Shown: piece by piece, positions 113 to 22,027 of the stretch
How the letters are laid out: each line of letters starts with the position of its first letter
Numbering within the stretch: position 1 is the stretch's first letter
Origin: Weissella koreensis KCTC 3621
GTDB taxonomy: Bacteria > Bacillota > Bacilli > Lactobacillales > Lactobacillaceae
Assembly: GCF_000277645.1 (NCBI RefSeq)
Contig: NZ_AKGG01000011.1
Coordinates: forward strand, 1-64,000
Direction of reading: 5' to 3'
Length of the DNA: 64,000 nt
Program-made: the position numbers and the translations under genes
The notes under the pieces: generated by a model
Seen by the model: the letters and a program-made list of their open reading frames with translations, nothing else
Database searches by the model: none
Told to the model about the DNA's origin: nothing

Positions 113-466
113 TTAATCGATTTTTTTTAACGTTAACATATCAAAAGTTAATAATAACAAGGCAATTCCTAATAGAAAATTTGATATTGCAAGATTAATA
201 CACGACATAAGAAACGTAATGCCAACAAATAAAAATCCCATACCCATATATAAAAACCACTTATTTAATATAATATACCAATGACTAATTTTTGATTTAA
301 AATAATTATTTTGTCGGTCTAATAATTATTTTGACAGTCCTTTTATATGTATTTTTTCATCTCCAAAAATTCTAGCAAATTGTCTTTCTCTGAGGAAAAT
401 AATAAACATCGTTATTATCAATATAAACTGTAGAAACAATAATAAAATAAGCACAGTATTCACCAA
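113..466 (-). pseudogene. Small 3-TM membrane protein with internal stop
   Basis: Read from a TTG (464-466) or GTG (461-463), the frame gives 46 residues with one hydrophobic segment, then meets TAA at 326-328. The same frame stays open past it for 70 more codons to a TAA at 113-115. That part encodes two further hydrophobic segments and a basic end (LTLKKID). One nonsense change, such as CAA to TAA, would explain the break. I do not recognise the family. No strong ribosome binding site precedes the start. It may be a remnant or a sequencing error. Confidence 0.45.
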
Positions 467-808: not shown

Positions 809-1481
809 GTCGCAGTTTATTATGGATTAATAATAGCTTAATTTTAATAATAACAATTTTATAAAAATATCACTATATGGAAAACTAAAATGAAATACTA
901 TATTAGTCAAAAAATTGGAGTAAGAATTAGGAATGTACGGTAAGTTATATTTCCAACACCCCAGATTCAACTAAAACTAAACGGCCCGAATTTCAGCCCT
1001 TAAACTCTTATTGTATGTATTTTCCATTTTCATAGATCTTAATAAATATGCGATTACTTTACATCTGACTGTTTTAGTTATTTATTAGATTATTTTATCC
1101 ATAATTTTTTTGGTATAAAATTTCTTCAACATTAATATCATTCTATCAGTGGGTTCAGTGGGTTTGTTTATTTCCTTATATCTAATAAATTTATTTAAAC
1201 ATATTTAATTATTAAATGGTATATAAATTATATCTTCACGTAAATCACCGCTCTCAACTCTCATACACAAATTCATAAGTATTTACTCCATATAAAAATA
1301 ACAGAAAGCACATTAATGTGCTTTTTTAATTAAATAAATTTATTTCATATTTATTTTAACCACACTAATTTAGTCATTACATCATACCAATAAATATTTT
1401 TGTCACAAAATGATATTACTAGCAACAATTACTTATATACGAATATTAATGACTTATTAAATATATATGGAGATTGGGGCT
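809..1481. other. Gene-free AT-rich stretch
   Basis: About 670 bases with no supportable coding frame. Only very short frames are seen on either strand. The one clear element is the hairpin at 1305-1329. The composition and tRNA relic next to it suggest eroded phage or island DNA. Confidence 0.5.
1305..1329 (+). terminator. Intrinsic terminator
   Basis: Perfect palindrome AAAGCACATTAATGTGCTTT followed by TTTTAATT. It reads as a plus-strand terminator upstream of the sigma-like gene. Its own upstream gene is no longer recognisable. Confidence 0.55.
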
Positions 1482-2084
1482 ATGTGGACGAATTTTGAAA
1501 ATATTTTAATGCAGAATGACTATCAATTAAATGATTTAACTTATGACGAAATATTCACAAAGATTGATAAAAATATAAAGATAAAAGCTAAAAATGCTTC
1601 TTATCGTGCTAATAACGTTGGTGTTCATATTTCATACGAAGATTTTTACAGTTACTTTCTTGAAGCCATTTGGAATGGATTAAATGCGTTCATATCAGAT
1701 CGAAATCTCATTTTGAGCCACGTTATGACACACAGGTTGAAAATCGCAGAATTAACTGTATGGCGTAGAAACCAACATACAGGATCTAATAAAGATAAGA
1801 ATCGCATAACATATATATCTACACGCAATTTATCTCTTGATTCTATGGAGTTAGATATCAAATATGAAATGGATCTATATAATTTTTCAAATTTAAAAAT
1901 ATTAATAGAAGAATTTTCAGAAAAATATCCGGAAGACGGTCTAATAATTAAAATGCTTTATCACGGATATTCACCAAAATTAATTTCCAAAAATCTCTTC
2001 AAATGTTCTCATTACTCAGACAAATATAGAAAAAGAATTAATAGAACTAGACATAACTTTGAGACATTTTATGTATCAAAATGA
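1482..2084 (+). CDS. Sigma-70-like regulator of a lysis cassette
   Basis: About 200 residues. An early segment around residues 45-70 (VGVHISYEDFYSYFLEAIW) resembles sigma region 2 as seen in phage-type and ComX/TcdR-like sigma factors. The C-terminal ~50 residues (LIIKMLYHGYSPKLIS, then a basic YRKRINRTR) resemble a region 4 helix-turn-helix. The ATG at 1482 is chosen because GGAG lies 8 bases before it; the ATG at 1467 overlaps that site and lacks its own. It stands 30 bases before a holin gene and in the same direction, so it may control the lysis genes. The assignment rests on pattern only and could instead be a phage late regulator of another type. Confidence 0.5.
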   Translation: MWTNFENILMQNDYQLNDLTYDEIFTKIDKNIKIKAKNASYRANNVGVHISYEDFYSYFLEAIWNGLNAFISDRNLILSHVMTHRLKIAELTVWRRNQHTGSNKDKNRITYISTRNLSLDSMELDIKYEMDLYNFSNLKILIEEFSEKYPEDGLIIKMLYHGYSPKLISKNLFKCSHYSDKYRKRINRTRHNFETFYVSK

Positions 2085-2114
2085 TTTTGTTTCTATTTTT
2101 GAAAGGTGTCTATT

Positions 2115-2477
2115 ATGAATACACTTATCCCATTATTTTTAACCGGTCAGTCCAAAGAACTACTTTATCTATTCATGTATTTATTACCAATTAGGTTAAT
2201 CGTCACACTCATTGAACGTAGCCCACCCTACCGTTCTGTTTTAATTAAATTTTTTAAATCAGAAGTATATAATTTATGTTTAATTCTAACGTGTGGAATA
2301 CTGGATCAAGCAGTAATTATTTACGACATTAACATAGCATTTAATTTTGCAGCGTTAACAACACTTTTAATTATCGTTGATGAAATATCTTCGATACTTG
2401 CTGATTCAAAAACAACAGTAAGCAGTAAATTAATCCAAAAATCAATTGATTTACTGAAACAATCACTAACAAAGTAA
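2115..2477 (+). CDS. Phage-type holin
   Basis: A 120-residue membrane protein with hydrophobic segments near residues 5-30, 50-70 and 75-95 and a short charged C-terminal tail. This matches the phage/toxin-secretion holin family, which forms pores that let endolysin reach the wall. The ATG at 2115 is used because GAAAGG sits 8 bases upstream; a GTG at 2106 overlaps that ribosome binding site. It lies 10 bases before the endolysin gene, the usual order in a lysis cassette. No phage morphogenesis genes are nearby. Confidence 0.6.
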   Translation: MNTLIPLFLTGQSKELLYLFMYLLPIRLIVTLIERSPPYRSVLIKFFKSEVYNLCLILTCGILDQAVIIYDINIAFNFAALTTLLIIVDEISSILADSKTTVSSKLIQKSIDLLKQSLTK

Positions 2478-2487
2478 GGAGTTAATT

Positions 2488-3230
2488 ATGTTAAAAATAG
2501 TTGATATTTCAAGTCATCAATCACCCAACTTCCAAAATGTAGGTGAAGATGGCGCTATTATTAAAGCTACAGAAGGAATAGATTATGTTTCACCTGCCTG
2601 TAACCCACAATTCACGGCATATAATGACTTGAATAAGCTCCTTGGTCTCTACCATTATGCTCAAGGCCTTGATCCCATAGAAGAAGCTGATTGGTTTTTG
2701 AATAATATCAAAAACTATTTATTTTAGTCTTAGATTGGGAAAGCGGAAGTAATTAAGCTTGGGGTGATTCAAACTGGCCAGAGAAATTTGTTACACATAT
2801 TCACGATAGAACGGGAATTTGGCCACTAATTTATATTCAAGCTTCCGCAATTGAACAAGTTAAAAATTTATCAGAAAAATGTGGGCTTTGGATAGCTGGT
2901 TATCCAGATTTGAGGGACTCCTGGTTAACACCATCGTTCATCTACTCTACTGATCCGTGGCCATATTTTACAGGTTGGCAATACTCTACTTCTAATGGTC
3001 TATTAGATCGATCTATTTTCAATTTATCAGATAACAATTGGCATAGTCTAGCTAATCCTAAAAATGATAATTCAATAAATGAAGATAATAACGTTTATAT
3101 CGTACAAAATGGAGACACATTAATTAACATCGCGGAAAAATTAAGCATTCCTGATTGGCACATATTAATTGAACTAAATAATATCGACAATCCAGACATG
3201 ATTACAGTTGGGCAAACACTCAAGTATTAA
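2488..3230 (+). pseudogene. GH25 endolysin (muramidase) with LysM, broken
   Basis: The N-terminus (MLKIVDISSHQ) is typical of GH25 lysozymes that cut peptidoglycan. The first frame stops at 2725-2727. Shifting one base at the preceding T run gives LDWESGSN, which holds the family's catalytic D-x-E, then an in-frame TAA at 2754-2756. After that the frame runs on (IWPLIYIQ, LWIAGYP, FTGWQYS) into a C-terminal LysM-like repeat (VYIVQNGDTLINIAEKL) and ends at 3230. So two separate lesions, a frameshift and a nonsense codon, break the catalytic domain. GGAG precedes the ATG. The intact product would be about 247 residues and act with the holin just upstream. Confidence 0.75.
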
Positions 3231-3251
3231 CAATAAGAATGGAGGCCAATT

Positions 3252-5366
3252 ATGGCAGACGAAATGGTTTTAGAAACACAAAAATGGTTAAACAAAACTT
3301 ATGGCAATGTCTCTGGGTTTGGATCAGTTCCTGAGAATGGTAAAACCGGTTGGGATACAATTTATGGACTTATTAGAGCAACTCAGGTTGAGTTAGGTAT
3401 TACTGGACTGGTTAACAATTGGGGGCCAACAAGTGCCGCATATTGGGACACCCAATTCAAAGATAAGATGAAAGTTGGTTATAAAGGTAACGTCGTCAAA
3501 ATTTTACAAGGTGCTTTCTGGTGTAAAGGGATCAACCCTCAAGATTTCACTGGTAATTTTTCAACGCGAACTCAAGAAGCAATTTATTCAATGAAAAGTG
3601 ATGCTGGAATTGCAGACACATCATACGTTGTTGATTCAGCATTTATGGGCGCCCTACTTACAATGAATCAATATGTATTAGTTGCAGGTGGAGATAAAGT
3701 CATTCGTAAAATGCAACAAGAATTAAATCATGATTATCAATCGTATACTGGAATTTTACCTACAGATGGAATTTATCAACGAGATACCAATACTGCCTTA
3801 ATCTATGCATTACAAGCAAGTGAAGGTATGGGAACTGATCAAGCTAATGGATTTTATGGTCCTGGAACAATCGCTAATACACCCTCGATTAGTCAAGGAG
3901 CTACTGGTGCATTTGTAAAGATCATCCAATAGGGGCTTTACGTTAACGGTTTCAATAGCTCCGCCTCATTTAGTGGAGTATTTGATAATAACGTTTCCTC
4001 TGAAATTATTGCCTTTCGAAAATTAATGGTATTACCTAATACTAATTCATCTACAGCTGATTTAACTGTATTTAAGGGGTTATTAACAAGTAACGGAGAC
4101 ACCGATCGCTCCGCTTTAGCTTTTGATACAGCAACACAACTATCATCAAGTCAAATTGATAGTCTTTGGAATTTGGGATATCGATATGCTGGACGATATC
4201 TCACTGGTTCCGTAGGTACCGGTGAGAATGAACGAGATAAAAATTTAACAAATACTGAAATTTCTCATCTACAAAAGAAAGAATTTTCAATTTTCCCTAT
4301 TTATGAAGATGGCGGATACACTGTAAAATATTTCAATGACGCACAAGGTATTGAGGATGCCGTTCTAGCTGCAAGAGTAGCAAAGCAACTAGGATTACCT
4401 CAAGGAACCACTATCTACTTCGCTGCTGATGTTGACTTATTAGATACTGAAATTGTTTCTAATTTAATTCCCTATATCCGAAATGCAAAAAGCTACCTTG
4501 CTAGCTTTGGTTACACTGCAGGATTGTATGGCACTAGAAATGCATGTTTACAAGCAGCTCAAGCCACTGGAATGAAGGACTTCTTCTTATGTGACATGTC
4601 TTCGGGCTGGAGTGGAAACTTAGGTTTCAAAATGCCTGAAAGTTGGACATTCGATCAATTCTTTGAGGAGACTGAAACAGGAGTAGGTGTTGATAAAGTT
4701 GCATATTCAGGTCGAGATGCTGGTTTCAATTCTATTGATAAGAATCAAATTGCAGTAAATGAAGCCATTAAGAAACTTGTACCTTGGTTTTCATTAAGTC
4801 TTGAGGGTAAACATACTATTTATGATATTGGTTGGATGAAATTAGTAACTAAAGCCACCAATTCAGCTGGTTTTGGAGGTGATTATGATTCAACGGCAGT
4901 TGTAGATATTAAAAATGGTAAGATTAGTAACGCGGATTTAAGTTCTGCATTTAAAAAATTTGGGTTAAATAATGATACAGGTCTCGATATAGCTGTCACT
5001 AGTATTGAAAAAGCTGCTTTAACTAAAACAGTTAAAAGTGGATCTCTAGAAATGAAATATAAAGTTTCCAATGGTGACTACACCATTGAAATAGATTATC
5101 AAGTAAATGAAATTGAAGAAGGTTATCTTGATGACACATTAACTATTGGTCTGGAAATTACATTACACTGGTCAAATTTTCTAGATGCTTTAGGAGCACT
5201 TAAGGAGGCAGCTGAAGCAATAGCAAGCGTTGTTGTATTAGTATCACTTGCAGTAATTGCAGTGGCTGCATTTCCACTAGATGCTGTAATTACCCCCGCT
5301 GCTGGTATACTAGAAGCAATAACTCTTTCGATAAGACTAATTGTTCAAACCGCGTTTAATAAATAA
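3252..5366 (+). pseudogene. DUF1906-type glycosidase-like wall protein, amber-interrupted
   Basis: One frame of about 705 codons, interrupted only by TAG at 3930-3932. The N-terminal 226 residues contain peptidoglycan-binding-like repeats (VGYKGNVVKILQGAF; ISQGATGAFVKIIQ). After the stop the frame continues GLYVNGFNSSASFSGVFD, the expected rest of such a repeat, so CAG to TAG is the likely lesion. Next is a glycoside-hydrolase-like DUF1906 (Rv2525c-like) domain (GYRYAGRYL, IFPIYE, IYFAADVD, YTAGLYGTR). The last ~60 residues are strongly hydrophobic and alanine/valine rich. GGAGG precedes the ATG. A second start at 4026 could yield a 446-residue C-terminal product. It ends the cassette and is followed by a strong terminator. 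Confidence 0.65.
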
Positions 5367-5367
5367 A

Positions 5368-5406
5368 TAAAAAAAGAGACTAATTCTAGTTTAGTCTCTT
5401 TTTTTA
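5368..5406 (+). terminator. Intrinsic terminator of the lysis cassette
   Basis: AAAAAGAGACTAA and TTTAGTCTCTTTTT form a strong hairpin directly after the DUF1906 gene stop, with a run of seven or more T. Confidence 0.8.
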
Positions 5407-5452
5407 TATCATGGGAAACAACATAGGCAATACCATCAACAAAATACCAGAT

Positions 5453-5510
5453 TTAATGTTCAATAATGTATTTTAGTAGTGTTAATGTTCAATAATGTAT
5501 TTTAGTAGTG
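5453..5510. repeat. 29-bp tandem duplication
   Basis: Two identical 29-base units (5453-5481 and 5482-5510), beginning TTAATGTTCAATAATG. Each encodes, on the minus strand, the last residues and stop of the neighbouring P-loop gene (LLKYIIEH then stop). It is a recent slippage duplication of that gene's 3' end. Confidence 0.85.
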
Positions 5511-5944
5511 CAGCATTTCGATCATTAATATGTTCAATCAAATCTTTATTTTCTTTGTCAAAAAAAGCTTGTCCAGATCCAACATTTAATAAATTATCAT
5601 TCAACTGTATTCCCAATCTTATTTTGGTCATTTATAAATTCAATGGCATCACCTTTAGTTCTACATGCAATAATTGCTATATCGACGTTATTTTGATTCA
5701 TTATTTCCATTGCTGTTTGAACAATATCTAGTGCATCACCTGCCGTATAAATACCTATTTTTTTATTAACATCTTGTATTTGATATTCAAAGACACTCCA
5801 AAAATCTTTACTGGATGTATTGTTATGTGTGACCTTATTTTTTATAATTTTCGATTGTATATTATCTGTTAATGCATCAAACAATTTATTTAAAGTTGTA
5901 TTTTTTCCGGAACCACTGACACCTGAAACAGCTATTGTTCTCAT
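5482..5944 (-). pseudogene. P-loop NTPase-like protein, C-terminal frameshift
   Basis: The main frame (5597-5944, 115 residues) begins MRTIAVSGVSGSGKNTT, a Walker A motif as in small kinases and GTPase/ATPase proteins. It ends early at IGNTVE. A different frame continues at once with NDNLLNVGSGQAFFD and ends LLKYIIEH at 5482, giving about 153 residues in total. The frame change lies near 5596-5602. The fold could be a small nucleoside-kinase-like or NTP-binding protein; substrate unknown. It faces the lysis cassette convergently. Confidence 0.5.
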
Positions 5945-6002
5945 AATTTATTCTCTTTTCTTTTTTATAAATACTTAAATAATTGATCTATTTATGTGAC
6001 TC

Positions 6003-6926
6003 TTAATCAATGGTAGGAATGGTAATGAAATCTCCTAAATTTGGCGTCCGTCGATAGAATATAAGTTCATTTTCCTTATTCTTATAGAAACATCCACATA
6101 ATACAATTTCAATGACCTCACCCGTCTCTGAAGCCTCTCTTAACTTACGTATATTGGTTAGACCTTTAAGCGTTTTGATGCCCCAATGAGCCTCCAAATC
6201 AGAATCCACAAATCGAATATAAAATTGCTTACCATAATATGTATCCTCTATGGATATTTTGGCATCCCCAAAAAATATATAATCTCTCATTAACTCAAAT
6301 TTCTTATTGTTCTTAGTTGGGATTACTATATCACCCAATTTTGCACTATTATATTTCAATGCCTGGACATTATGATCTTCAGAAAAATCTTTCTTTAAGT
6401 GTGGCCACTGCATTTCTGCATACACATTTTCCCAAGCATTAGTTTCTTTTATTTCTAAATAAAATTTTTGAAGACTATAACCGATGGCACGTCTCTTATG
6501 ATAATCATCTACTGATAACACAACTGAACTAGTATATTTTGCTATGTCTATATGATCTTCTTCGGTTGATTCACCATTTACAATTTTTTCTTTTTGTTCA
6601 CGTTGCTTGAATATCAATGATTTTGTATCTTTAATAATTCCGCCTTCTTCAAGTCCAGCACCATACTTTTCATTGTATACATCCAAAGAAAGATCCTGAG
6701 CCTCACAGTAGCTTTTATGGGGCACTTTGGTCTGTGCAATATAAAAGTAAACTCGTTTTGGAGTCTCTTTATTTAAGTTAGTGAGTTTGAGTTTTACATG
6801 ACAATGTGGACATTCATATTGTGCATTATCAGCAAATACTGCCTTATTCTCTTGATGTTGTTGCCAAACAGCAGTTGCTGATACTTGATAATTCGGTGTT
6901 GCACCAGTAAATATTGCATGATCCAT
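6003..6926 (-). CDS. Unrecognised 307-residue protein with N-terminal CxxC motif
   Basis: The start ATG has AAGGATG upstream. Residues 35-75 contain YECPHCHVKLKL followed about 30 residues later by HKSYCEAQ. This is a possible Zn-binding site that loosely recalls the N-terminal finger of CoiA-like competence proteins. The rest is charged and shows no motif I recognise; it lacks membrane segments. It stands alone among relics, so an island-borne accessory or defence role is possible but not shown. Confidence 0.5.
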   Translation of the reverse strand: MDHAIFTGATPNYQVSATAVWQQHQENKAVFADNAQYECPHCHVKLKLTNLNKETPKRVYFYIAQTKVPHKSYCEAQDLSLDVYNEKYGAGLEEGGIIKDTKSLIFKQREQKEKIVNGESTEEDHIDIAKYTSSVVLSVDDYHKRRAIGYSLQKFYLEIKETNAWENVYAEMQWPHLKKDFSEDHNVQALKYNSAKLGDIVIPTKNNKKFELMRDYIFFGDAKISIEDTYYGKQFYIRFVDSDLEAHWGIKTLKGLTNIRKLREASETGEVIEIVLCGCFYKNKENELIFYRRTPNLGDFITIPTID

Positions 6927-6944
6927 AATTTTTACATCCTTTAC

Positions 6945-7267
6945 TTAATAATCAAATATTGAAAGTCCAATACTCTTTGCTGACTTTTCCAGGATTGGGT
7001 CTCCCTTATGCTTCAATTCCAGTCTTAACTATCAGAAATCGTAATATAATATTTGTCTGGAACAGATAGACTCACTCCATCTTCCATTTGAATATCAAAT
7101 GATTATTCTTCCTCAACATAATCGATTGATTCAATCTTAACGTCTTGTTCTTGACCTTCTAACAACATTCCACGTTGGTATTTTTCAAATGACTTACCTA
7201 CTTCAAAATATTCAAACGAAAAATCTTGTCTTATCATATTAACACTTCTTAATTTTTTAATGGCCAT
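6945..7267 (-). pseudogene. Decayed small gene
   Basis: An ATG at 7265-7267 with a good GGAG site opens a 54-residue acidic frame (MAIKKLRSVN...) ending at TAA 7103-7105. The same frame continues after the stop (SFDIQMEDGVSLSVPD) to 7025. A shifted frame then carries on with LELKHKGDPILEKSAKSIG to 6945. This looks like one gene of about 105 codons with a nonsense codon and a frameshift. The first 54 residues may still be made. No family recognised. Confidence 0.35.
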
Positions 7268-7340
7268 TTTTGTTTTCTCCTATTTTTTCTAAATGCTTGA
7301 TGGATTCACACTTTTATTAATAACATATTATTTTTATATT

Positions 7341-7529
7341 CTATTTAAAAATTAGACATAGAATACCCACAATAAACCATCCAAACAATGCTCCTACATA
7401 CATAGAGAGAGAAATGTTTGTACTTTCCTTGCTTAGTCTAGACATAATTTGCACTCCTCCAAATGACATGAAAGAAATAACGTTAACTAATGCAGCCGTA
7501 CCAAAAACAATAATAATCGCTCCTATAAA
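7341..7529 (-). pseudogene. Small 2-TM membrane protein remnant
   Basis: The frame between TGA (7530-7532) and TAG (7341-7343) encodes two hydrophobic segments (AIIIVFGTAALVNVISF; MYVGALFGWFIVGIL) joined by a polar loop. An AGGAG lies just before ATT codons, but there is no normal start until internal ATGs. It may be a gene that lost its start. Confidence 0.3.
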
Positions 7530-7560
7530 TCAGAGTAGTTTAACTATAATTTATTCATCC

Positions 7561-7968
7561 TTAATCTTCTAATAGAATACTTTCCAATGCTTCTGTTGTT
7601 ACCTTTGAAACATTAATTTTTTCTTTTTTCGCCAATTGATTTAAATAATCTGGAATTGTAATAGTCTTTTTAACTGTTTTGGACATTCCTTTTCTTAAAT
7701 CATCAATATTAAAAACAACCATTGCAATTACTGTTGTATCTGGTGATTCCCACTCTTCTAATTCGACATCTTCAATACTAGATGCATCAGGAAATTTAAA
7801 TTTATCTTCAAGCATCAAGCCAACTGCTTCTTGAATCATTTTGGTCGCTTCAGTAAAACTATCCCCTTGCGATATAGCACCAACGTCAGGTACTCTAACA
7901 GAATAACCACCAACCTCTTCTTTCGCATATACCACAGGATAAATAAGTGTCTTTCCTTCTTGCTTCAT
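7561..7968 (-). CDS. hicB: HicB-type antitoxin
   Basis: 135 residues. The N-terminal half has the HicB partial RNase-H-like fold pattern: IYPVVYAKEEVGGYSVRVPD followed by a helix with EATKMIQEAVGLML. The C-terminal half ends in a DNA-binding segment (TITIPDYLNQLAKKEKINVS) of ribbon-helix-helix type. It lies directly downstream of hicA, the usual toxin-antitoxin order. HicB proteins bind and block HicA and repress their operon. The gene appears intact. Confidence 0.85.
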   Translation of the reverse strand: MKQEGKTLIYPVVYAKEEVGGYSVRVPDVGAISQGDSFTEATKMIQEAVGLMLEDKFKFPDASSIEDVELEEWESPDTTVIAMVVFNIDDLRKGMSKTVKKTITIPDYLNQLAKKEKINVSKVTTEALESILLED

Positions 7969-8295: not shown

Positions 8296-8637
8296 TCATC
8301 TCAATGTTGCTTGTAAAATCATTTGTATCTCATTAAACTTGTCGGTTGGCAACATCTCTACAGTCTTCCAACTTCGGCTAGTATAGTCAAACATTCTTAA
8401 TTGTTCCGCATACACGGTTCCATCAGTTTCTGTTCTTTCATCTAACTTTATGTGCATTGGATATTGCTTACCATTAAAACTACCGTGCGATATGGGAACT
8501 GCCCAGATAAATGGGGACGTCATAGCTAAAATATGATTACTTACTACTACAGCTGGTCGTTTCTTCTGGATTTCTTTTCCCTTGCTAGGATCAAAATCAA
8601 TGTATATGATTGAACCCGTTTTTGGCTTGTCTACCAT
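8296..8637 (-). CDS. mazF: MazF/PemK-family endoribonuclease toxin
   Basis: 113 residues with the family hallmarks: GSIIYIDFDPSKGKEIQKKRPAVVVSN at the N-terminus (dimer and RNA-binding loops), then WAVPISHG, and a C-terminal GTVYAEQLRMFDY with the conserved arginine region. It cuts mRNA when free of its antitoxin. Its start overlaps the antitoxin gene by 7 bases, showing translational coupling. Intact length for the family. Confidence 0.9.
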   Translation of the reverse strand: MVDKPKTGSIIYIDFDPSKGKEIQKKRPAVVVSNHILAMTSPFIWAVPISHGSFNGKQYPMHIKLDERTETDGTVYAEQLRMFDYTSRSWKTVEMLPTDKFNEIQMILQATLR

Positions 8638-8879
8638 ATTTCTTGACCCACCTTACTATCTGCATCATTTCCCCACAAATTTTCACCTGGATACTCATTA
8701 CTTACATCCCAATCAGAAAATAATTCTTCCATACTTATTTGAGATTTTTTTTCTGGGGTTAGACGTATAATACCTTTTTCGTCCATATCTACGTCAAACT
8801 TTTGACCAGCCTCGACATTTAATTTCTTAGGTAACGTAATCGTGACTGCATTACCTTGAATTCTAGCTTTTACTGCCAT
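8631..8879 (-). CDS. mazE: MazE/PemI-family antitoxin
   Basis: 82 residues. The first ~50 form an AbrB-like swapped-hairpin domain (MAVKARIQGNAVTITLPKKL), and the C-terminal acidic, tryptophan-rich tail (FSDWDVSNEYPGENLWGND) is the usual toxin-wrapping segment. GGAGGAG stands 7 bases before the ATG. It is followed by mazF with a 7-base overlap. A palindrome upstream is its probable binding site. Confidence 0.85.
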   Translation of the reverse strand: MAVKARIQGNAVTITLPKKLNVEAGQKFDVDMDEKGIIRLTPEKKSQISMEELFSDWDVSNEYPGENLWGNDADSKVGQEIW

Positions 8880-18902: not shown

Positions 18903-19478
18903 TTATTTTTTATTACGGCGTTTTTTACTTAACAATGTTCCTAATGCCAGTACACCAGCTAATAATTCTTCTTCAATAAATTTATTTTCCTGATATGCAG
19001 CATCCGTAGATGGCAATGAAGGATCTGCATTATTGTCTGAATGTGAGCCGCTCGTTGAATTACTATCTGATACTGAATCCGATGTTGAATCACTTGTCGA
19101 GTCACTCATTGATTCTGATGTTGAATCACTTTGTGAGTCGGAATGTGAGTCGCTCGTTGAATCTGATGTTGATTCTGAGTCTGACAACGAATCACTATCT
19201 GATACTGAATCACTTAATGAATTACTATCTGATACTGAATCCGATGTTGAATCACTTGTCGAGTCACTCATTGATTCTGATGTTGAATCACTTTGTGAGT
19301 CGGAATGTGAGTCGCTCGTTGAATCTGATGTTGATTCTGAGTCTGACAACGAATTACTATCTGATACTGAATCCGATGTTGATTCACTTGTCGAGTCACT
19401 CATTGATTCTGATGTTGAATCACTTTGTGAGTCGGAATGTGAGTCGCTCGTTGAATCTGATGTTGATTCTGAGTCTCA
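18903..19478 (-). pseudogene. Frameshifted C-terminal part of the serine-rich adhesin (wall anchor)
   Basis: This frame carries on the Ser-Asp-x-Ser repeats after the shift near 19475-19480 and ends in a cell-wall sorting region: LPSTD, a hydrophobic stretch ([12 protein letters not shown]) and a basic tail, KKRRNKK. Sortase A normally needs LPxTG; here the glycine codon reads GAT (Asp), one base from GGT. Without the frameshift it would be joined to the adhesin at 19400-22027. It lacks its own ribosome binding site. Confidence 0.7.
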
Positions 19479-22027
19479 TTGTCTGATACTGAATATGACG
19501 TTGAATCACTTAATGAATTACTATCTGATACTGAATCCGACGTTGAATCACTTTCTGAAGCATTGTCTGATAATGAATCCGACGTTGAATCACTTTCTGA
19601 AGCATTGTCTGATACTGAATCTGATGTTGATTCACTTTCTGAAGCATTGTCTGATAATGAATCCGATGTTGATTCACTTTCTGAAGCATTGTCTGATACT
19701 GAATCTGACGTTGATCCACTTTCTGAAGCATTGTCTGATAATGAATCTGACGTTGAATCACTTAATGAATTACTATCTGATACTGAATCCGATGTTGATT
19801 CACTATCTGAAGCATTATCTGATACTGAATCTGATGTTGATTCACTTTCTGAAGCATTGTCTGATACTGAATCTGATGTTGATTCACTATCTGAAGCATT
19901 GTCTGATACTGAATCTGACGTTGAATCACTTAATGAATTACTATCTGATACTGAATCCGATGTTGATTCACTATCTGAAACATTGTCTGATAATGAATCT
20001 GATGTTGATTCACTATCTGAAGCATTGTCTGATACTGAATCTGACGTTGAATCACTTAATGAATTACTATCTGATACTGAATCCGACGTTGATTCACTTT
20101 CTGAAGCATTGTCTGATAATGAATCCGACGTTGATTCACTCTCTGAACCATTGTCTGAATCACTTAATGAATTACTATCTGATACTGAATCCGATGTTGA
20201 ATCACTTTCTGAAGCATTGTCTGATAATGAGTCTGATGTTGATTCGCTATCTGAAATATTGTCTGATACTGAATCTGATGTTGATTCACTATCTGAAGCA
20301 TTGCCTGATACTGAATCCGACGTTGATTCACTATCTGAAGCATTATCTGATACTGAATCTGATGTTGATTCACTATCTGAAGCATTGTCTGATACTGAAT
20401 CTGACGTTGAATCACTTAATGAATTACTATCTGATACTGAATCCGACGTTGAATCACTTGTTGATTCGCTATCTGAAATATTATCTGAATCACTTAATGA
20501 ATTACTGTCAGATAATGAATCCGACGTTGAATCGCTTGTTGATTCGCTATCTGAAATATTATCTGAATCACTTAATGAATTACTGTCAGATAATGAATCC
20601 GACGTTGAATCGCTTGTTGATTCGCTATCTGAAATATTATCTGAATCACTTAATGAATTACTGTCGGACAATGAATCCGACGTTGAATCACTTGTTGATT
20701 CGCTATCTGAAATATTATCTGAATCACTTAATGAATTACTGTCGGACAATGAATCTGACGTTGAATCGCTTGTTGATTCGCTATCTGAAATATTATCTGA
20801 ATCACTTAATGAATTACTGTCAGACAATGAATCCGACGTTGAATCGCTTGTTGATTCGCTATCTGAAATATTATCTGAATCACTTAATGAATTACTGTCG
20901 GACAATGAATCTGACGTTGAATCACTTTGAGAATTTGAGTGTGAGTTACTTTCGGAAATATTATCTGAATCACTTAATGAATTACTATCAGACAACGAAT
21001 CAGATGTTGAATCACTTTCTGAACCATTATCAGATAATGAATCCGACGTTGAATTACTCTCTGAACTATTGTCAGATAATGAATCAGACGTTGAATTACT
21101 CTCTGAACCATTGTCAGATAATGAATCAGACGTTGAATCACTCTCTGAACCATTGTCAGATAATGAATCAGATTCACTTCCTGAGGTACTTTCGGAATCG
21201 GTACCTGGATTTTCACTGTTCGAATCTGACGTTGAATCACTTAATGAATTTGAATTTGAACCAGATTCAGAATCAGATGATAATGGCGTCCATAAGTTAA
21301 TATCTGTCTTTGCACCATAGTTAGTATTTATTTGCATCATAGCATGAGAACCAAAAACATTAGATCCTACAAGTAGATTTGCATTTAATTTCCATTCGGC
21401 AACATCACCTTTATTTAAGGCAGATAGATCCATTTTCTGACCAGCATAGTACCCAGAAACCGCAGAAGTGTCTTCAGAACCAATATGTGGTTGAATCCAT
21501 CCATCCGTTCTATCTCCAATTTTTGAAGCTATAACTACAACAGTTGATGAAGAAGTATATCTGTTTTCATTAAGATTATTAACTAAAACTTTACCATCTA
21601 AAGATCCAGTGTGCGAAGACCAACCAGCAGTATATGGTCCAGGAGCAACATTCATCATATCCCTATAGCCATGGTTCAAATAATATGCCGTTCTTTCATC
21701 ACGATTACTTGAGTGAATTATGGTATAGTCTTTATCTGATGTCACTACTTTATTGTTTTTACTATCTGACTTAATATCATCAGAAGCTGGTATTGTTGTT
21801 GATTTTTGATTCGCTAATAATTTACTAGTGCTACTGCTACTCGCTTCTGTAGTCTTACCTTCATTTGTTTGCGCATGAACAGCTAATGGTAATGCTGCCC
21901 CCCCACTTAAAATTCCTGCCACACTGGTAATAGTGGCATAAGCCCATGACTTATTAGCTTTATATGCTTTATATCTCTGCTTTTTATCAGATTTTTTTAG
22001 TAATTTTAAATTATTTTTCTTAGACAT
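19400..22027 (-). CDS. Serine-rich repeat glycoprotein adhesin (3' frameshifted)
   Basis: 875 residues in this frame. The N-terminus has an accessory-Sec signal peptide of the KxYKxxK type ([21 protein letters not shown]) ending near AVHAQT. A short Ser/Thr-rich part follows, then a unique domain of roughly 150 residues (about 95-250: [20 protein letters not shown] ... [16 protein letters not shown]), the probable ligand-binding region. About 600 residues of Ser-Asp/Glu/Asn-Ser repeats follow, which would be O-glycosylated by GtfA/GtfB and exported by SecA2/SecY2. The final ~16 residues ([15 protein letters not shown]...) are out of frame, after a shift near 19478. The whole protein would be about 1,040 residues. 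Confidence 0.85.
20430..20930 (-). repeat. 78-bp tandem repeats in the adhesin
   Basis: About six nearly identical 78-base units encode the 26-residue motif [20 protein letters not shown] plus TSDSLS. The high DNA identity between units makes slippage, copy-number change and assembly error likely. The less regular Ser-Asp repeats on either side (19030-20430 and 20930-21270) derive from the same theme. Confidence 0.85.

What the first reader, a model, noticed from the sequence alone, without database searches (positions are those of the whole stretch)
1467..5406. Stand-alone cassette: sigma-like regulator, holin, endolysin, DUF1906 wall protein
Four collinear genes (about 10-30 base gaps) resemble a lysis module with its own sigma-like regulator, but no phage structural or replication genes are present. 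The order recalls toxin-release loci in which a TcdR-like sigma factor and a holin serve export of a large protein. Here the cargo could be the 705-codon peptidoglycan-binding protein. The lesions show the copy is decaying. The functional link is inference.
Basis: partly seen in the sequence, partly recalled or inferred. Interest (0 to 1): 0.7.

Follow-up and report, generated by a model that had tools for sequence, protein, structure and literature searches.

The report
Decayed Bac41-type bacteriocin locus in Weissella
A kimchi bacterium carries the broken remains of a gene cluster that most likely made and released a large bacteria-killing protein, and its relatives suggest a little-described family of such proteins whose ends vary and are followed by probable protective membrane proteins.

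Summary
The four genes are real. They look like a decayed Bac41-like bacteriocin locus in Weissella koreensis (nearest genome KACC 15510, 99.2% identical over 5.5 kb), not a phage remnant. Gene 1 is BacL2-like; Pfam sees no sigma domain, but its predicted fold matches sigma factors. Gene 2 is a divergent holin. Gene 3 (GH25-LysM lysin) and gene 4 (BacA-like: peptidoglycan-binding plus DUF1906) are broken here. Both, and a membrane-protein gene behind them, are intact in KACC 15510, where bacL2 is broken instead; the window keeps 16 codons of that membrane-protein gene. In 25 full-length relatives the N-terminus is conserved and the last ~200 residues vary, ending in a hydrophobic tail in 21; a small membrane protein follows in 22, against 30 of 190 control ORFs. 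KACC 15510 also fuses a related C-terminal module to a phage tail-fibre body, with another membrane protein behind it. Best reading: a sigma-like switch, holin and lysin release BacA, which binds the target's wall and attacks its membrane; the neighbour gives immunity. Regulation, release, killing and immunity are inferred, not tested.

The parts
1467..2084 (+). BacL2-like, sigma-like regulator (205 aa), open in the window
   Evidence: NCBIfam NF041508 BacL2 E 8.1e-39, 133.6 bits, below its cut-off of 200; sigma-factor-like fold
2115..2477 (+). divergent holin (120 aa, 3 hydrophobic segments), open
   Evidence: no Pfam or PHROG hit of its own; BLAST E 6e-12 to the holin-position gene of L074 and 6e-5 to that of L072, which is PF05105 Phage_holin_4_1
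2488..3230 (+). GH25-LysM lysin, broken (10-base deletion near 2721 and a stop at 2754-2756)
   Evidence: PF01183 and PF01476 on its pieces; open 250-aa copy in KACC 15510; lesions
3252..5366 (+). BacA-like effector gene, broken by a stop at 3930-3932; PG_binding_1, DUF1906/Rv2525c-like domain, C-terminal module with hydrophobic tail
   Evidence: PF01471 and PF08924; phrog_15213 on both pieces; 51% to E. faecalis BacA over 581 aligned residues; open 704-aa copy
5367..5407 (.). 17-pair hairpin, probable terminator between the effector gene and the convergent immunity remnant
   Evidence: site count not above shuffles; T run also on the plus strand by eye
5407..5454 (-). remnant (last 16 codons) of the candidate immunity gene, which is 166 aa and open in KACC 15510
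   Evidence: tblastn 93.75% over 16 residues
116..466 (-). pseudogene, with an internal stop, of a membrane protein related to the one behind effector 2 of KACC 15510
   Evidence: 58% to the 172-aa protein over 117 aligned residues

Best explanation
A decayed Bac41-like bacteriocin locus. In the intact ancestor a sigma-like activator (BacL2-like) switched on a small operon; the holin opened the producer's membrane and the GH25-LysM lysin its wall, letting out the 704-residue BacA-like effector, which has no hydrophobic N-terminal export signal. Outside, its peptidoglycan-binding repeats and DUF1906 domain dock on a rival's wall, and its variable C-terminal module (predicted beta core plus hydrophobic helices) attacks the rival's membrane. 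The convergent small membrane protein protects the producer against its own C-terminal type. Shown by sequence or model: gene identities, decay, variable C-terminus, membrane protein behind it, sigma-like fold. Inferred: transcriptional control, release route, membrane killing, immunity.
For: BacL2 and BacA homology and the shared parts of the E. faecalis Bac41 locus. Sigma-like fold. Of 10 loci with a BacL2 signal (9 in the 8 genomes, plus L007), 7 have a holin, 7 a lysin and 6 a BacA-like gene nearby. In 25 of 25 full-length BacA-like proteins the first 45 residues hold no hydrophobic segment; a hydrophobic segment in the tail and not elsewhere in 20 of 25 against 2 of 205 control ORFs (looser test, tail only looked at: 21 of 25 against 23 of 205). 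Membrane protein or signal-bearing protein of 130-310 aa directly downstream in 22 of 25 against 30 of 190 controls; in a second, overlapping set of named loci, run without controls, 55 of 68 (38 of 42 with the tail, 17 of 26 without). Mean pairwise identity falls from 0.30-0.63 per 25-residue block before residue 500 to 0.11-0.20 in the blocks from 501 to 700. A related C-terminal module on a phage tail-fibre body, and an orphan 219-aa copy, each with a membrane protein behind it.
Against: BacL2 scores below the curated cut-off. In the second set only 8 of 71 loci show a BacL2 and 8 of 71 a holin with my queries and flanks, so holin release cannot be general. Bac41 BacA is described in print as cofactor of the lysin BacL1 (PMC9951850 passages), not as a membrane killer. 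The C-terminal model is weak (mean pLDDT 59, the hydrophobic helices mostly under 50) with no PDB match at E <= 0.001. Pairing of C-terminal and membrane-protein type rests on 8 similar pairs, 7 of them from two groups of close relatives. The hydrophobicity test cannot tell a membrane protein from a signal peptide, and controls are predicted ORFs, not annotated genes. Neither W. koreensis strain seen has a wholly open cassette.
Confidence: 0.66

Rival explanations
1. Bac41 model as published: the lysin is the killer and the BacA-like protein only its wall-binding activator; the membrane protein blocks that.
For: BacL1 is described as the endopeptidase and BacA as its co-factor (PMC9951850 passages). 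The lysin sits in the same operon.
Against: No BacL1 match in KACC 15510 (no positive control); the lysins at BacL2 loci are of different enzyme classes; most BacA-like loci show no relative of the two lysins used as queries (other lysin classes were not looked for there) and still have the downstream membrane protein. The hydrophobic tail and the membrane nature of the partner point to the membrane.
Confidence: 0.23
2. Remnant of a prophage lysis module.
For: Holin and GH25 lysin are phage-type proteins.
Against: BacL2 in 0 and a near-full BacA in 1 of 50,697 phage records; no phage structural family among 8 downstream window proteins; relatives of the DUF1906 piece in 542 of 72,556 plasmids, 22 of them covering 80% or more of it.
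Confidence: 0.05
3. A cell-wall remodelling or autolysis operon without bacteriocin function.
For: All parts are of kinds that act on wall or membrane.
Against: A variable C-terminus with a membrane protein behind it, 18 paralogous small proteins in rows at 5 loci of one genus and an orphan C-terminal cassette look like conflict; presence is patchy, 45 of 395 genomes, weak matches included; both strains show decay.
Confidence: 0.06

Closest known systems
Bacteriocin 41 (Bac41) of Enterococcus faecalis: bacL1, bacL2, holin-family gene, 175-aa ORF, bacA, downstream membrane-protein genes (as on pRFP1)
   Same: BacL2-like regulator, holin and BacA-like protein (51% over 581 aligned residues) in the same relative order; membrane protein downstream.
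   Different: Lysin is GH25-LysM between holin and bacA instead of a BacL1-type enzyme (Amidase_5, Phage_lysozyme, SH3_5) upstream; no 175-aa gene; membrane protein of another sequence; on the chromosome in KACC 15510; decayed.
Bcn5/UviA/UviB/endolysin of Clostridium perfringens
   Same: Sigma factor, holin, endolysin and a bacteriocin without Sec signal, with a wall-acting part and a hydrophobic C-terminus, as described in PMC9527704 (passages).
   Different: Other protein families by that description (BhlA-type holin, MpaA-like peptidase domain); homology was not tested here.
PGBD + Rv2525c-like TIM barrel proteins with TelC (lipocone) domains, PMC12419801 (section 31 read)
   Same: Same N-terminal backbone and, in Actinomycetota, a rapidly evolving 3-TM or Ig-domain neighbour; proposed there as conflict systems.
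   Different: There the toxic end is TelC; here 21 of 25 have a hydrophobic tail. The C-terminus of the other 4 matched nothing in Pfam; whether it is TelC was not tested.
TcdR/TcdE-type toxin-release loci
   Same: Sigma factor beside a holin and a large cargo (PMC4597214 passages).
   Different: The cargo here looks antibacterial and has an immunity candidate; no homology test was made.

Membership tests
BacL2 (NF041508 equivalog) | score over the curated cut-off of 200 bits | tested here: not met
   133.6 bits, E 8.1e-39 over residues 7-201; hence called BacL2-like
sigma-70 family | significant sequence match to a sigma profile | tested here: not met
   no Pfam hit for the window protein; 1 of 13 aligned relatives matched Sigma70_ECF at E 0.092
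sigma-70 family | region 2 helical fold | tested here: met
sigma-70 family | region 4 helical fold | tested here: inconclusive
sigma-70 family | binding to RNA polymerase core | not testable with these tools
   needs experiment
Bac41 | BacA-type effector | tested here: met
   50.8% over 581 aligned residues, E 2e-168; broken in the window
Bac41 | BacL1-type lysin | tested here: not met
   lysin is GH25-LysM; no BacL1 match in KACC 15510 (no positive control). Hence Bac41-like, not Bac41
Bac41 | immunity protein downstream of bacA | tested here: inconclusive
   166-aa membrane protein in KACC 15510, 16 codons left in the window; protection not testable
Phage_holin_4_1 (PF05105) | profile match | tested here: not met
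   no hit for the window protein; linked only through relatives
GH25 | PF01183 over gathering score | tested here: met
   54.8 bits on the window piece, 96.7 on the open copy, cut-off 27
polymorphic toxin system | conserved N-terminus, variable C-terminus, small membrane-protein gene downstream, orphan modules | tested here: met
polymorphic toxin system | toxicity of the C-terminus and protection by the neighbour | not testable with these tools
   needs experiment

The most novel reading that the evidence does not exclude
BacA-like proteins form a widespread polymorphic bacteriocin superfamily of Gram-positive bacteria: exchangeable aiming bodies (PG-binding + DUF1906, or a captured phage tail fibre) carry a fast-evolving membrane-inserting C-terminal domain neutralised by a paired membrane protein, and in one branch they are released by a sigma-like regulator with its own holin and lysin. 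The tail-fibre fusion in W. koreensis would be a single-protein killer aimed by a phage receptor-binding part.
Probability: 0.5. Interest if true: 0.78.

Novelty: new variant of a known kind. Interest (0 to 1): 0.56.

Why it matters
It ties three separately described things together: Bac41 of enterococci, the clostridial sigma-holin-endolysin-bacteriocin loci, and PGBD-Rv2525c conflict proteins. If right, holin-plus-lysin release of large bacteriocins under a dedicated sigma-like factor exists in lactic acid bacteria, including food species, and proteins now annotated only as 'glycoside hydrolase domain-containing' or 'DUF1906' are antibacterial effectors with predictable immunity partners. 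KACC 15510, a kimchi strain, holds two open effector genes, each with an open membrane-protein gene beside it, so the idea is directly testable.

Tried and rejected
Prophage origin was tested and rejected. A sequence match to sigma profiles failed. The search of 5.8 billion proteins with the single BacL2-like sequence found 1 protein; with the 6-sequence alignment it found 8. The genome-contig scan with that single sequence found no relative. The BacA C-terminal region found only the window's own protein in the big database and, as a single sequence, only KACC 15510 (two places) and one other of 395 genomes; a profile of 18 C-termini reached 87 ORFs in the held loci, its own 18 among the candidates. 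PDB fold search with the C-terminal model gave no match at E <= 0.001; weak hits (anti-sigma kinases, DcrB and others) were not used, and one weak model does not show that the fold is new. The promoter scan found 18 sites against a mean of 22.7 in shuffles, so no BacL2-dependent promoter is claimed. Three primary Bac41 papers were not held; what I recall of them (bacL2 called a regulator; the BacA C-terminus and BacI deciding immunity specificity) comes from no call. Searches for prior art: 0 papers; 128, 20 listed; 3,983, 20 listed, barium chloride papers, useless; 82, 40 listed; 3; 109, 20 listed; 8; 45, 30 listed; 24, 15 listed. From titles and opening abstracts no listed paper describes a Bac41-like locus in Weissella or the tail-fibre fusion; I opened only the eight papers PMC8532689, PMC9951850, PMC9527704, PMC7464874, PMC4687380, PMC12419801 and PMC4597214 (passages or one section each; seven in number), lists were capped, and most subscription papers are not in that library.

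Rows dropped: L088 (duplicate of L064) and L011 (broken) were left out of the counts; only BacA-like ORFs over 640 aa (25) entered; fragments and broken copies did not. One search kept 80 of 384 relatives; 71 of the 80 had a matching ORF of at least 620 aa. The second set overlaps the first (for example L102 with L066, L145 with L072, L152 with L074) and is not independent. Some holin matches in it are short or weak (L165: E 3e-4 over 27 residues).
Full report
What is there. Window 1467-5366 holds four plus-strand genes with short gaps and a hairpin behind them. Protein 1 (205 aa) matches NCBIfam BacL2 (E 8.1e-39, 133.6 bits, cut-off 200) and no Pfam family. Protein 2 (120 aa) has three hydrophobic segments and is tied by BLAST to the holin-position genes of L074 (E 6e-12) and L072 (E 6e-5); the latter is PF05105. 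Gene 3 is a GH25-LysM lysin in two pieces; gene 4 has PG_binding_1, the DUF1906/Rv2525c-like domain and a hydrophobic end, also in two pieces.

Organism and decay. The nearest held genome has a contig of 1,422,478 bp, the length printed for the Weissella koreensis KACC 15510 chromosome (PMC7464874 Table 1, PMC4687380 Table 1; passages); the identification rests on that length. The window's own assembly is not held. Window 1-5456 matches KACC 15510 at 99.2% over 5,481 bp, and synteny resumes at window 7535. There the lysin (250 aa) and the BacA-like protein (704 aa) are open, followed by a convergent 166-aa membrane protein, while bacL2 has a stop. The window keeps bacL2 and holin open, has lost the lysin and bacA frames and retains 16 codons of the membrane-protein gene. 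The two strains decay in different genes.

Relation to Bac41. On E. faecalis plasmid pRFP1 the order is peptidoglycan amidohydrolase, BacL2, holin family protein, 175-aa protein, DUF1906-type protein, then small membrane proteins (I call the first BacL1 and the fifth BacA from homology and recall; bacL2 is annotated in the record). The window protein is 51% identical to that BacA over 581 aligned residues. BacL2 relatives were found in 112 of 72,556 plasmids, all Enterococcus, and in 8 of 395 genomes of the order, 3 over the cut-off. Ten loci with a BacL2 signal (nine plus L007) carry a holin in 7, a lysin in 7 and a BacA-like gene in 6; the lysins differ in class: BacL1 type, GH25-LysM, LysM with a weak GH19-like match (E 0.054, below cut-off), CHAP-glucosaminidase-SH3, M23 and phage lysozyme. 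In G332 the lysin lies on the other strand and BacL2 is a remnant. The three loci where I saw no holin in the stretch printed are G089 (BacL2 fragment), G393 (BacL2 broken) and G189 contig 33.

The effector family. phrog_15213, which covers the BacA-like protein, matched 45 of 395 genomes (26 of 80 genera), some by short or weak matches. In 25 full-length proteins mean pairwise identity per 25-residue block is 0.30-0.63 up to residue 500 and 0.11-0.20 from 501 to 700. None has a hydrophobic segment in its first 45 residues; 20 of 25 have one in the tail and not elsewhere, against 2 of 205 control ORFs (tail alone: 21 of 25 against 23 of 205). The other 4 have a different C-terminus that matched nothing in Pfam. 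The nearest downstream ORF is a 130-310 aa protein with a hydrophobic segment within 300 bp in 22 of 25 loci, against 30 of 190 control ORFs from the same loci. In 80 named loci, 71 have a full-length protein; 42 of these have the tail; 55 of 68 testable have such a neighbour (38 of 42 with the tail, 17 of 26 without; no control was run on this set). Named genera include Listeria, Enterococcus, Bacillus, Lactiplantibacillus, Weissella and Clostridium. Several Clostridia proteins are far longer and do not fit the pattern.

Pairing. Of 231 locus pairs, 8 have recognisably similar downstream proteins and all 8 also have similar C-termini; none has similar downstream proteins alone; 23 have similar C-termini only and 200 neither. 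Seven of the 8 come from two groups of close relatives (four loci of one genus; L009 with L065): N-termini 94-99% identical, C-termini 59-86%, downstream proteins 36-80%. The eighth (L057/L064) is 77, 53 and 32%. So ends and neighbours diverge faster than the body, but the pairs are few and related. In Lacticaseibacillus hulanensis an orphan 219-aa gene repeats just the C-terminal module (44% to the neighbour's) with a second, dissimilar protein behind it.

A chimera. In KACC 15510 a second, partly deleted cassette follows: bacL2, holin and lysin remnants, then an open 801-aa gene. Residues 6-592 match a protein two genes from the tape-measure gene of a prophage-like region (50% over 612), and phage tail-fibre families match within 300-595 (phrog_7032 E 4.6e-20); residues 597-793 match the BacA C-terminus (28%, E 2.5e-14). 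Pfam gave nothing for it. A 172-aa protein follows, whose broken relative lies at window 116-466. This second cassette is not in the window.

Mechanism. Most likely the sigma-like factor switches on the operon, holin and lysin release the effector, the wall-binding body docks it, the C-terminal module acts on the membrane, and the neighbour protects. The same plan is described for Bcn5 of C. perfringens: sigma factor, holin, endolysin and a bacteriocin with hydrophobic C-terminus (PMC9527704 passages; its main text holds 0 mentions of Enterococcus). Against generality, only 8 of 71 named loci show a BacL2 and 8 of 71 a holin with my queries. Against membrane killing, Bac41 BacA is described as co-factor of BacL1 (PMC9951850 passages), and my model of the C-terminal domain is weak. 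PGBD-Rv2525c backbones with TelC ends and evolving 3-TM neighbours are already proposed as conflict systems (PMC12419801 section 31), so the backbone idea is not new; what I did not find in print, within the capped lists, is the hydrophobic-tail class, the Weissella locus and the tail-fibre fusion.

Verdict. It is a decaying new variant of the Bac41 kind of locus, interesting mainly for the family it opens.

Noticed in passing
L173 442-2844 (KACC 15510 contig C2 18997-21402): Open 801-aa fusion of a phage tail-fibre-like body with a BacA-type C-terminal module, followed by a 172-aa membrane protein; not in the window.
   Followed up: yes
   Followed up: partly
L100 7729-8958: Orphan C-terminal module (219 aa) with its own small protein behind it in Lacticaseibacillus hulanensis.
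   Followed up: partly
window 5457-7534: This 2.1-kb stretch stands where KACC 15510 has 5.6 kb (the second cassette); by eye it begins with a direct repeat near 5455-5510, and its 307-aa ORF (6003-6926, minus) has no Pfam, NCBIfam or PHROG match at E 0.001.
   Followed up: no
window 7561-7968 and 8296-8879, minus strand: HicB-like antitoxin, and a MazF-like protein with a small regulator-like gene, next to the rearranged stretch (PHROGs).
   Followed up: no
window 19023-21300: Highly repetitive gene region (875-aa ORF at 19400-22027, minus) that aligns to KACC 15510 in many registers; repeat number may differ between strains.
   Followed up: no
hit H81, MT836466.1: A 10-kb 'Bacteriophage sp.' record from human faeces holds the only near-full BacA-like gene among 50,697 phage records; possibly not a phage.
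   Followed up: no
L165 3485-7742: Oceanobacillus neutriphilus carries a holin-like gene (weak match, E 3e-4), by eye an amidase-like gene, a BacA-like gene and a convergent small protein in one row, with no BacL2 found.
   Followed up: partly
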